Positions 6,507 through 30,297 of a stretch of 32,296 bases of DNA are shown here, in pieces. Numbering within the stretch: the stretch's first letter is position 1; each line of letters opens with the position of its first letter. A program made the position numbers and the translations under genes. Where the stretch lies: positions 1 to 32,296 of the forward strand of contig CAKKPF010000031.1 of NCBI GenBank assembly GCA_919901575.1. The letters are read 5' to 3'. The stretch is from Candidatus Brocadiaceae bacterium. GTDB lineage: Bacteria > Planctomycetota > Brocadiia > Brocadiales > Scalinduaceae. Below the pieces are notes generated by a model. It had not been told where the DNA came from and did not search any database. It saw nothing but the letters and a program-made list of their open reading frames with translations.

Positions 6507-7709
6507 ATGGCCAAGGAGGTATTTGAGAGGACGAAGCCGCATGTGAATGTGGGGACGATAGGGCATGTTGATCACGGCAAGACGACGTTGACGTCGGTGA
6601 TAACGCATACATTATCGAAGATTGGTCTTGCGAAGGATAGGCCATTTGATAGTATAGACAATGCGCCTGAGGAGAGGGAGAGAGGAATCACGATAGCGAT
6701 AGCGCATGTTGAGTATGAGACAAAGAAGAGGCATTATGCCCATGTGGATTGTCCTGGTCATGCTGATTATGTAAAGAATATGATAACGGGTGCAGCGCAG
6801 ATGGATGCTGCGATACTGGTGGTAAGTGCGCCGGATGGTCCGATGCCGCAGACGCGTGAGCATATACTACTTGCTAGGCAGGTAGGAGTGCCGAGGATCG
6901 TGGTGTTCATGAACAAGATGGACCAGCTGGAAGATCCTGAGTTGGTGGAATTAGTGGAGTTAGAGATCAGGGAGTTGTTGAGCAAGTATGAGTTTCCCGG
7001 AGACGATATACCAGTGATCAAGGGTTCCGCGATAAAGGCTGCGGAGTGTGGTTGCGGTAAGAGGGAATGTGATAAATGTGGTTGCATACATGAATTGATG
7101 GATGCGCTGGATACTTATATACCAGATCCTGTGCGAGAGACGGACAAGCCGTTTTTGATGTCGCTGGAGGACGTGTTCAGTATAAAGGGTAGAGGTACGG
7201 TAGGTACTGGTCGAATGGATCGAGGGGTGTTGAAGGTAGGAGACGAGGTAGAGATAGTGGGTATGGTAAAGGAGATAAGGAAGACGGTGGTAACTGGGGT
7301 GGAGATGTTTAACAAGACGCTTGAGCAGGGTATGGCAGGGGATAATGTAGGGGTGTTGTTAAGGGGAATAGAAAAGGATGATTTGGAGCGAGGTCAGGTG
7401 TTGGCGAAGCCTGGCAGTATAACACCTCATACCAAGTTTGAGGCAGAGGCGTACATATTGACGAAGGAAGAGGGCGGCAGGCATACGCCGTTTTTTAATG
7501 GATACCGTCCGCAGTTTTATTTTCGGACTACGGATGTGACGGGAGTGGCGACGTTATTGGGTGGAGCAGAGATGGTGATGCCTGGAGACAATGCTAATTT
7601 GCAGATAGAGTTGATAACGCCGATAGCGATGGATGAGGGGCTGAGGTTTGCGATAAGAGAGGGCGGAAAGACGGTAGGAGCCGGTGTTGTTACTAAAATT
7701 ATTGAATAA
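6507..7709 (+). CDS. tuf: Elongation factor Tu, copy 1, with cysteine-cluster insert
   Basis: EF-Tu carries aminoacyl-tRNA to the ribosomal A site as a GTP complex. This 400-aa copy has all GTPase motifs: GHVDHGKTT (19-27), the switch I threonine in RGITI (59-63), DCPGHADY (81-88), NKMD (136-139) and GSA (173-175). Straight after the last motif comes a cysteine cluster, C-x-C-x4-C-x2-C-x-C (181, 183, 188, 191, 193), where E. coli has GDAEWE. Switch I reads [11 protein letters not shown] rather than GITINTSHVEY, and domain 2 has GTVGTGR rather than GTVVTGR. Domains 2 and 3 are otherwise complete. The Shine-Dalgarno is TTGAGGAG. The coding sequence appears identical to copy 2 at 22348-23550 from ATG to TAA. 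Codon use is strongly AAG-biased, unlike the neighbours. Confidence 0.98.
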
Positions 7710-7726: not shown

Positions 7727-7876
7727 ATGGCTAACTATATAACTTTAGCATGTACAGAATGTAGTAGTAGGAATTATAGAACAAGTAAGAAGGTAAAACA
7801 GACAGAGCGCCTGGAAACGAAGAAGTTCTGTAAGTTTTGTAGATTGCATACATTACATAAAGAGCAAAAAAAATAG
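7727..7876 (+). CDS. rpmG: 50S ribosomal protein L33, zinc-binding (C+) form
   Basis: This 49-aa frame is too short for the supplied ORF track. It starts [20 protein letters not shown] and contains CTEC and CKFC, the two CxxC knuckles of the zinc-binding type of L33. It lies 17 bp after the tuf1 stop and 6 bp before tRNA-Trp. The order tuf-rpmG-trpT-secE-nusG is the usual position of this gene in many bacteria. The ending [10 protein letters not shown] is typical of the family (H-x-x-x-x-E-x-K). L33 sits near the E-site region of the large subunit. The start is ATG with a weak ribosome-binding sequence, perhaps helped by coupling to tuf1. Confidence 0.93.
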
Positions 7877-22347: not shown

Positions 22348-23550
22348 ATGGCCAAGGAGGTATTTGAGAGGACGAAGCCGCATGTGAATGTGGGGACGAT
22401 AGGGCATGTTGATCACGGCAAGACGACGTTGACGTCGGTGATAACGCATACATTATCGAAGATTGGTCTTGCGAAGGATAGGCCATTTGATAGTATAGAC
22501 AATGCGCCTGAGGAGAGGGAGAGAGGAATCACGATAGCGATAGCGCATGTTGAGTATGAGACAAAGAAGAGGCATTATGCCCATGTGGATTGTCCTGGTC
22601 ATGCTGATTATGTAAAGAATATGATAACGGGTGCAGCGCAGATGGATGCTGCGATACTGGTGGTAAGTGCGCCGGATGGTCCGATGCCGCAGACGCGTGA
22701 GCATATACTACTTGCTAGGCAGGTAGGAGTGCCGAGGATCGTGGTGTTCATGAACAAGATGGACCAGCTGGAAGATCCTGAGTTGGTGGAATTAGTGGAG
22801 TTAGAGATCAGGGAGTTGTTGAGCAAGTATGAGTTTCCCGGAGACGATATACCAGTGATCAAGGGTTCCGCGATAAAGGCTGCGGAGTGTGGTTGCGGTA
22901 AGAGGGAATGTGATAAATGTGGTTGCATACATGAATTGATGGATGCGCTGGATACTTATATACCAGATCCTGTGCGAGAGACGGACAAGCCGTTTTTGAT
23001 GTCGCTGGAGGACGTGTTCAGTATAAAGGGTAGAGGTACGGTAGGTACTGGTCGAATGGATCGAGGGGTGTTGAAGGTAGGAGACGAGGTAGAGATAGTG
23101 GGTATGGTAAAGGAGATAAGGAAGACGGTGGTAACTGGGGTGGAGATGTTTAACAAGACGCTTGAGCAGGGTATGGCAGGGGATAATGTAGGGGTGTTGT
23201 TAAGGGGAATAGAAAAGGATGATTTGGAGCGAGGTCAGGTGTTGGCGAAGCCTGGCAGTATAACACCTCATACCAAGTTTGAGGCAGAGGCGTACATATT
23301 GACGAAGGAAGAGGGCGGCAGGCATACGCCGTTTTTTAATGGATACCGTCCGCAGTTTTATTTTCGGACTACGGATGTGACGGGAGTGGCGACGTTATTG
23401 GGTGGAGCAGAGATGGTGATGCCTGGAGACAATGCTAATTTGCAGATAGAGTTGATAACGCCGATAGCGATGGATGAGGGGCTGAGGTTTGCGATAAGAG
23501 AGGGCGGAAAGACGGTAGGAGCCGGTGTTGTTACTAAAATTATTGAATAA
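22348..23550 (+). CDS. tuf: Elongation factor Tu, copy 2 (identical coding sequence to copy 1)
   Basis: This is the str-operon copy of EF-Tu, 400 aa, with the same cysteine cluster (181, 183, 188, 191, 193) and the same GTPase motifs as copy 1. Line-by-line reading found no nucleotide difference from 6507-7709. The similarity stops at both ends: upstream is GGAGGAAGAAGAGGG here but GAGGAGTTTATATT in copy 1, and downstream the two differ from the first base after TAA. That pattern fits concerted evolution by gene conversion plus selection. The strong Shine-Dalgarno (TTGGAGGAAG) lies 41 bp or less after fusA, and rpsJ starts 13 bp after the stop. Confidence 0.98.
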
Positions 23551-30111: not shown

Positions 30112-30297
30112 ATGGCAAGAAAAGCATTAATAGTAAAATCTGAGAAGGAACCAAAGTACAAAACCCGTAGATATAACAGGTGCCGGCTTTGCGGTAGATC
30201 CAGGGCGTATTATAGAAAATTTCAAATATGTAGAATATGCTTCAGGAGTCTTGCGTCAAAAGGAGAAATACCTGGTGTGAGAAAGGCCAGCTGGTAA
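30112..30297 (+). CDS. rpsN: 30S ribosomal protein S14, zinc-binding type Z
   Basis: S14 lies in the head of the small subunit. The start [19 protein letters not shown] at 30112 is chosen over the ORF-track start at 30091 because it matches the family and has a GGAG Shine-Dalgarno. The 61-aa short form has the CRLCG and CRIC knuckles of the zinc-binding type Z. The end is the usual [11 protein letters not shown]. The long zinc-free form of about 100 aa is absent here. Confidence 0.98.

What the first reader, a model, noticed from the sequence alone, without database searches (positions are those of the whole stretch)
7047..7085. Five-cysteine cluster inserted in the EF-Tu GTPase domain (copy 1)
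Residues 181-193 read C-x-C-x4-C-x2-C-x-C, directly after the G5 motif GSA, where E. coli EF-Tu has the acidic GDAEWE stretch. Five cysteines in 13 residues is the pattern of a small zinc or redox site. EF-Tu is normally poor in cysteine and this loop is surface-exposed, so it could couple translation to metal or oxidative state, or brace the G domain. The change of length is a few residues only. Both genomic copies carry it, so the cell has no cysteine-free EF-Tu in this window. I cannot say from the sequence how widespread it is among related lineages.
Basis: partly seen in the sequence, partly recalled or inferred. Interest (0 to 1): 0.72.

Follow-up and report, generated by a model that had tools for sequence, protein, structure and literature searches.

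The report
Four-cysteine loop in bacterial EF-Tu
The protein that carries amino-acid-loaded tRNAs to the ribosome (EF-Tu) in anammox bacteria, and in scattered lineages of about twenty other bacterial phyla, has a small loop with four fixed cysteines that most likely grips a zinc ion; if so, one of the cell's most abundant proteins has an unrecognised metal site in those bacteria.

Summary
In detail: both tuf copies, identical over 1203 bp, encode C181-x-C183-x4-C188-x2-C191-x-C193 just after the G5 motif. The unit is four cysteines, not five. C181, C183, C188 and C191 are invariant in all 26 readable members of the window's order (the anammox order of Scalindua, Kuenenia and Brocadia). C193 is present in only 2 of 26 and is a common lone cysteine in cluster-less planctomycete EF-Tus. 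The same four-cysteine loop occurs in EF-Tus carrying about 20 phylum labels: 63 of 83 readable genomes in Moorella's phylum, and 5-20% of genomes in four other phyla sampled. It behaves as a unit. Of 151 fetched EF-Tus not chosen by the motif, 81 have four loop cysteines and none has three. Two homologues lost all four at unchanged loop length; three moved or shortened the spacing and kept four. On the EF-Tu tree the trait changes at least 18 times (5 firmly). I read it as a structural Zn(Cys4) staple bracing the loop between G5 and the next helix, an EF-Tu counterpart of the C+/C- ribosomal proteins. Metal binding is inferred, not shown; AlphaFold2 confidence did not discriminate; redox or metal control of translation has no support here.

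The parts
6507..7709 (+). tuf copy 1, EF-Tu, 400 aa
   Evidence: TIGR00485 706 bits; identical to copy 2
7047..7079 (+). Cys4 core of copy 1: C181 (7047-7049), C183 (7053-7055), C188 (7068-7070), C191 (7077-7079)
   Evidence: invariant 26/26 in the order; retained at the same spacing in EF-Tus of many phyla
7083..7085 (+). C193 of copy 1, fifth cysteine, judged not part of the core site
   Evidence: 2 of 26 order members; Cys at this column in 23 of 50 cluster-less planctomycete EF-Tus
22348..23550 (+). tuf copy 2, EF-Tu, 400 aa, DNA-identical to copy 1
22888..22920 (+). Cys4 core of copy 2 (C181, C183, C188, C191); C193 codon follows at 22924-22926
   Evidence: identity with copy 1; DNA pattern hit G000:C31:22864-22937
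7727..7876 (+). ribosomal protein L33, zinc (C+) form, CTEC...CKFC: context showing zinc forms of translation proteins in this genome
   Evidence: translation; named by sequence resemblance and position, no family search run on it
30112..30297 (+). ribosomal protein S14, zinc (C+) form, CRLCG...CRICF: context
   Evidence: translation; named by sequence resemblance and position

Best explanation
EF-Tu in this organism carries a structural zinc site, Zn(Cys4), formed by C181, C183, C188 and C191 in the loop between the G5 motif (GSA, 173-175) with its short helix (175-181) and the next helix (192-204). Shown: the four cysteines are a conserved, co-inherited unit with a tightly kept loop length, in EF-Tus spread over many phyla, gained or lost repeatedly. 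Inferred: they bind one zinc ion tetrahedrally, fold the loop into a rigid knuckle, and so brace the G5 side of the G domain, replacing the short acidic loop of E. coli EF-Tu or the 10-residue insert of Thermus EF-Tu at the same place. It would work like the zinc knuckles of C+ ribosomal proteins: a fold-stabilising staple that lineages can drop, not a sensor.
For: (1) Within the order C181, C183, C188 and C191 are 26/26, with loop neighbours at up to about 2 bits and both Cys codons in use. (2) Unit behaviour: fetched EF-Tus not chosen by the motif have 4/3/2/1/0 loop cysteines in 40/0/2/14/34 (own phylum) and 41/0/0/1/19 (Moorella's phylum, negatives fully sampled). (3) L223 and L241 keep the loop length but lost all four together (EEGDGTRENKWSG); L218, L221 (CGCGECDWC) and L222 (CGGCTQCEWC) changed spacing and kept four. 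(4) Loop length fixed at 18 in 36/36 Cys4 EF-Tus of the own phylum against 13-20 in cluster-less ones. (5) Patchy: at least 18 state changes on the EF-Tu tree built without the loop, 5 forced by well-supported branches. (6) In Moorella's phylum all 61 Cys4 genomes scored have zinc-type S4, against 9 of 19 cluster-less genomes; every informative independent pair goes the same way but there are too few. (7) The window's L33 and S14 and the order's S4 (36/36) are zinc forms. (8) Precedent: S4 exists as zinc and non-zinc forms with the same kind of patchy history, including replacement of the four Cys by Glu/Arg/Ser (PMC3087516).
Against: No metal was measured and no solved EF-Tu has the cluster. 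AlphaFold2 gives the loop high confidence (block 181-190 mean 94) but gives the cysteine-less homologue L223 92, so model confidence says nothing about a metal; no coordinates were available to measure S-S distances. The S4 association is not corrected for ancestry and is not seen among the other Planctomycetota (Cys4 EF-Tu genomes outside the order: 5 of 12 with zinc S4, others 142 of 344). C-x-C-x4-C-x2-C is not a textbook zinc ribbon (two C-x2-C knuckles).
Confidence: 0.72

Rival explanations
1. A thiol redox switch: the cysteines form disulfides on oxidation and change EF-Tu activity, coupling translation to redox state.
For: Four cysteines in 11 residues could form disulfides. EF-Tu is known (own knowledge) to be redox-sensitive at Cys82 in cyanobacteria. 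The guanine-side cysteine C138 is depleted in Cys4 EF-Tus (2/36 against 15/50 and 1/37 against 7/17), so thiol chemistry nearby may matter.
Against: A disulfide pair needs only two cysteines, yet no two- or three-cysteine derivatives of the cluster were seen in Moorella's phylum and no three-cysteine state in either sample; the tight length constraint fits a four-ligand site better. The named carriers include strict anaerobes as well as lineages I believe to be aerobic (own knowledge).
Confidence: 0.1
2. An iron-sulfur cluster, C183-x4-C188-x2-C191 resembling the plant-type [2Fe-2S] loop with C181 as fourth ligand.
For: Spacing C-x4-C-x2-C is shared with plant-type ferredoxins (own knowledge); many carriers (anammox, Moorella, Syntrophomonas, Pelotomaculum) are anaerobes rich in Fe-S proteins.
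Against: The plant-type fold needs a distal fourth cysteine, and here the fourth is at -2. Carriers include Sulfobacillus and Thermoleophilia, which I regard as mostly aerobic. EF-Tu needs no electron carrier. Cys4 EF-Tu tracks zinc forms of S4 in one phylum.
Confidence: 0.07
3. The Cys4 loop is mainly an interaction element (for example for EF-Ts, L7/L12 or another partner) and metal binding, if any, only shapes it.
For: The loop is variable in cluster-less EF-Tus and lies on the surface in known EF-Tu structures (own knowledge), the type of place where lineage-specific contacts arise.
Against: Non-cysteine loop positions vary freely inside the order (up to about 2 bits), which does not look like a conserved contact surface. 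No partner covariation could be tested with power (one search has 5 supported pairs).
Confidence: 0.07
4. Chance or neutral cysteine richness, or an assembly or annotation artefact.
For: Single cysteines do occur in the loop of cluster-less planctomycete EF-Tus (14 of 90).
Against: 26/26 conservation in the order, identical spacing in EF-Tus from isolates as well as MAGs (Moorella mulderi, Carboxydocella), reversed-pattern control empty in every genome searched with the EF-Tu pattern.
Confidence: 0.02

Closest known systems
C+/C- (zinc and non-zinc) bacterial ribosomal proteins: S4, S14, S18, L28, L31, L32, L33, L36 (PMC3087516)
   Same: Universal translation protein; four-cysteine site present in some lineages and lost in others; patchy phylogeny; complete loss with residues such as Glu/Ser replacing Cys; Clostridia and delta-proteobacteria mainly C+.
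   Different: EF-Tu is a soluble factor, not a ribosomal protein. No genome here carries a C+/C- pair of tuf genes, so no Zur-type paralogue swap is seen. Zinc is proven in the crystal structure for S4, not for EF-Tu.
Canonical EF-Tu (E. coli; Thermus thermophilus 1exm, 4h9g)
   Same: Whole protein, three domains, all G motifs; best structural matches of the model (TM 0.93-0.95 to Thermus EF-Tu); variable loop in the same place.
   Different: E. coli has a short acidic loop about 5 residues shorter; Thermus has a 10-residue cysteine-free insert; neither has the cluster.
Zinc knuckle of archaeal/eukaryotic initiation factor e/aIF2-gamma (translational GTPase; recalled from own knowledge)
   Same: A translational GTPase of the same superfamily with a structural zinc site in its G domain.
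   Different: Different place in the domain and different spacing, as far as I recall; not verified here (the paper consulted, mentions zinc only for aIF2-beta and aIF1).

Membership tests
EF-Tu (TIGR00485 equivalog) | Full-length profile match above the curated cut-off | tested here: met
   706 bits against 522.4, residues 1-400
EF-Tu (TIGR00485 equivalog) | G1-G5 motifs intact (GHVDHGKT, switch I, DCPGH, NKMD, GSA) | tested here: met
   sequence; alignment
EF-Tu (TIGR00485 equivalog) | Delivers aminoacyl-tRNA to the ribosome | not testable with these tools
   inferred from homology and the str-operon context (fusA-tuf-rps/rpl)
C+/C- zinc translation proteins | Four conserved cysteines that come and go as a unit | tested here: met
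C+/C- zinc translation proteins | Patchy distribution across phyla with many gains or losses | tested here: met
C+/C- zinc translation proteins | Zinc bound by the four cysteines | not testable with these tools
   no coordinates or metal data; no solved homologue with the cluster
C+/C- zinc translation proteins | C+ and C- paralogues in one genome (a feature of some, not all, families) | tested here: not met
   two-copy genomes are concordant by pattern: in Moorella's phylum no genome with two EF-Tu matches has exactly one pattern match; 17 two-copy order genomes are all +/+
C+/C- zinc translation proteins | Distribution parallels other zinc r-proteins | tested here: inconclusive
   61/61 against 9/19 zinc S4 in Moorella's phylum, not significant after phylogenetic pairing; absent in Planctomycetota outside the order
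Classical zinc ribbon | Two C-x2-C(G) knuckles | tested here: not met
   first pair is C-x-C, second C-x2-C
Plant-type [2Fe-2S] ferredoxin site | C-x4-C-x2-C plus a distal fourth cysteine | tested here: not met
   no conserved distal cysteine other than universal C82 of the DCPGH motif

The most novel reading that the evidence does not exclude
Because EF-Tu is among the most abundant bacterial proteins, a Zn(Cys4) EF-Tu would be one of the largest zinc pools of these cells and could act as a releasable zinc store or make elongation zinc-dependent, so that zinc supply limits translation in anammox bacteria and many Clostridia.
Probability: 0.1. Interest if true: 0.85.

Novelty: new variant of a known kind. 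Interest (0 to 1): 0.52.

Why it matters
EF-Tu is one of the best-studied and most abundant bacterial proteins and is normally regarded as needing only Mg-GTP. A conserved four-cysteine site in it across anammox bacteria and lineages of about twenty phyla, repeatedly gained or lost, appears unreported in the open papers searched. If it binds zinc it adds EF-Tu to the list of C+/C- translation proteins, changes zinc budgets for those cells, and gives a natural stability variant at the hinge beside the guanine pocket. It can be tested in a culturable organism (Moorella) with standard biochemistry.

Tried and rejected
Five-cysteine site: rejected, C193 is not conserved. Lineage-specific oddity: rejected, widespread. 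Model confidence as evidence of metal: tried with an all-Cys-lost control and rejected (94 against 92). Zur-type paralogue swap of tuf copies: looked for, none seen. Zinc-economy correlation through S4: strong in one phylum, not replicated in the own phylum outside the order. Residue-by-residue covariation scan: too few independent pairs to be informative and its long output was partly cut. Two early S4 sequence parsers failed and their tables are superseded. First versions of two DNA patterns had a counting error and found nothing before correction. Two of 118 genome contigs pattern hits (L102, L140) are not EF-Tu. Literature searches found no description of the site; they cover open-access papers only. 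An earlier count gave pLDDT 97 for block 181-190; the right value is 94 (97 is block 191-200), corrected.

Full report
WHAT IS THERE. The window is the whole of contig C31 of a 2.73 Mb MAG assembly and holds a canonical str-operon region: four tRNAs, tuf copy 1, L33, tRNA-Trp, further ORFs, rpoB, rpoC, fusA, tuf copy 2 and a run of ribosomal-protein ORFs (genes not covered by a family search are named by position or sequence resemblance). Residues 181-193 of the EF-Tu at 6507-7709 read [13 protein letters not shown] at 7047-7085. Copy 2 at 22348-23550 is identical over 1203 bp and the identity stops exactly at the gene ends, which suggests recent gene conversion. No other full-length EF-Tu is in the assembly.

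WHOSE GENOME. The window therefore belongs to the anammox order of the Planctomycetota, in the Scalindua family. Whether this particular organism performs anammox was not checked.

FOUR, NOT FIVE. In the 26 genomes of the order with a readable full-length EF-Tu, C181, C183, C188 and C191 are invariant, with both TGT and TGC in use, while positions 179, 185, 186, 189 and 190 vary by about 2 bits. C193 is Cys in only 2 of 26 and usually Pro. The 10 order genomes without the motif also lack a full-length EF-Tu match in the protein search, so they are gaps in assembly, not exceptions. Column 193 is Cys in 23 of 50 cluster-less planctomycete EF-Tus: it is an independent, common single cysteine.

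WIDESPREAD BUT PATCHY. By genome, pattern hits are 38 of 392 in the own phylum (26 in the order and 12 of 356 outside it), 58 of 120 in Moorella's phylum, 22 of 108 and 10 of 111 in the phyla of a 'Deltaproteobacteria' and a Thermoleophilia MAG, 13 of 100 in that of a Nitrospirae MAG and 5 of 96 in that of a Patescibacteria MAG. These phyla were chosen because a carrier was known in each, so the figures are not a bacterial average. The reversed-pattern control was empty in all of these. On an EF-Tu tree of 216 sequences with the loop removed, the trait needs at least 18 changes, 5 of them forced by well-supported branches, against 57 for shuffled labels. Gain and loss cannot be told apart.

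THE CYSTEINES ARE ONE UNIT. In Moorella's phylum 83 genomes have a readable EF-Tu. 57 match the pattern; the 26 that do not were all fetched, and six of them still have four loop cysteines. That gives 63 with four, 1 with one, 19 with none, and none with two or three. Three of the six changed the spacing (L218 and L221 CGCGECDWC; L222 CGGCTQCEWC) and kept four cysteines. Conversely L223 (EEGDGTRENKWSG) and L241 kept the loop length but lost all four. In the own-phylum sample the counts for 4/3/2/1/0 are 40/0/2/14/34. Loop length from A178 to L197 is 18 in 36/36 Cys4 EF-Tus of the own phylum and 13-20 in cluster-less ones. This is the signature of a four-ligand site and is hard to explain by two-cysteine redox chemistry or by neutral drift.

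STRUCTURE. AlphaFold2 places the loop between helix 175-181 and helix 192-204 with block confidence 94; the overall fold matches Thermus EF-Tu in the GTP form. A control model of the cysteine-less L223 gives 92 for the same block. Confidence therefore does not discriminate, and no coordinates were returned for measuring S-S distances. No EF-Tu in the PDB sequence set carries the cluster.

WHY ZINC. The choice of zinc is inference. Four cysteines in 11 residues with kept length, presence in strict anaerobes and in lineages I believe to be aerobic, and all-or-none loss fit structural zinc best. Two indirect tests were run. First, zinc-type S4: in Moorella's phylum all 61 Cys4 genomes scored have the C+ form, against 9 of 19 cluster-less genomes (Fisher p 5.6e-8 without correction for ancestry). 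With independent pairs every informative pair agrees but there are too few for significance. In the own phylum the order is 36/36 C+ for S4, but outside the order the two traits are unrelated (5 of 12 against 142 of 344; the S4 pattern is strict and misses some C+ forms). So the zinc-economy link is suggestive, not established. Second, the guanine-side Cys138 (the NKCD cysteine of many EF-Tus) is depleted in Cys4 EF-Tus (2/36 against 15/50; 1/37 against 7/17), again not corrected for ancestry; if real it may reflect avoidance of a competing thiol beside the site.

MECHANISM. Most likely (0.72): a zinc ion held by C181, C183, C188 and C191 staples the loop and rigidifies the G5-helix junction beside the guanine pocket, giving stability, like the knuckles of C+ ribosomal proteins; lineages can swap it for a short acidic loop or, as in Thermus, a longer cysteine-free insert. 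Sensor or regulatory roles have no evidence here: two-copy genomes are concordant, with no C+/C- tuf pairs in the samples.

COMPARISON AND NOVELTY. The closest known kind is the set of C+/C- ribosomal proteins; S4 shows the same patchiness, complete cysteine loss and substitution by charged or small residues (PMC3087516). EF-Tu does not appear in that paper. Ten open-access literature searches found no description of the EF-Tu site; subscription journals were not searchable, so novelty is provisional. I class it as a new variant of a known kind.

Noticed in passing
window 6507-7709 and 22348-23550: The two tuf genes are identical at all 1203 bases with no identity beyond the gene ends, as expected from recent gene conversion (or a shared consensus in assembly).
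   Followed up: partly
L196:90-1277 (Acidobacteria bacterium 2016_B02_sed_C_26): EF-Tu-like protein only 43.5% identical to the window's, with an unrecognisable switch I (AYGPNGSTVSSFSQIEYES), DCPAHAD, and a rewritten domain III, yet with the Cys4 loop intact (RCGCGGPQCPNC): a decayed or repurposed tuf paralogue.
   Followed up: no
EF-Tu residue 138 (NKxD) across samples: The cysteine of NKCD is rare in Cys4 EF-Tus and common in cluster-less ones in both phyla sampled; possible mutual exclusion of two thiol features near the guanine pocket.
   Followed up: partly
L034, L119, L172, L181; pattern hits G546, G584: A fifth cysteine at column 193 recurs in separate lineages that also have the Cys4 core (CKCI/CQCI), so the window's five-cysteine form is not unique.
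   Followed up: partly
G488 (Moorella's phylum), C1:2258673-2259419 and C1:1854617-1855207: One tuf copy carries an in-frame TAG and a second, C- sized S4 copy carries a TAA in the same genome: pseudogenes, or a sequencing or recoding matter.
   Followed up: no
G378:C14:87895-87963 and G378:C57:28578-28646: The Scalindua sediminis genome has two different zinc-type S4 motif hits.
   Followed up: no
Planctomycetota: 183 of 392 genomes match the zinc-type S4 pattern, whereas the 2009 survey (PMC3087516, Table 2) lists Planctomycetes S4 as C- or mixed; the wider MAG sampling changes that picture.
   Followed up: no
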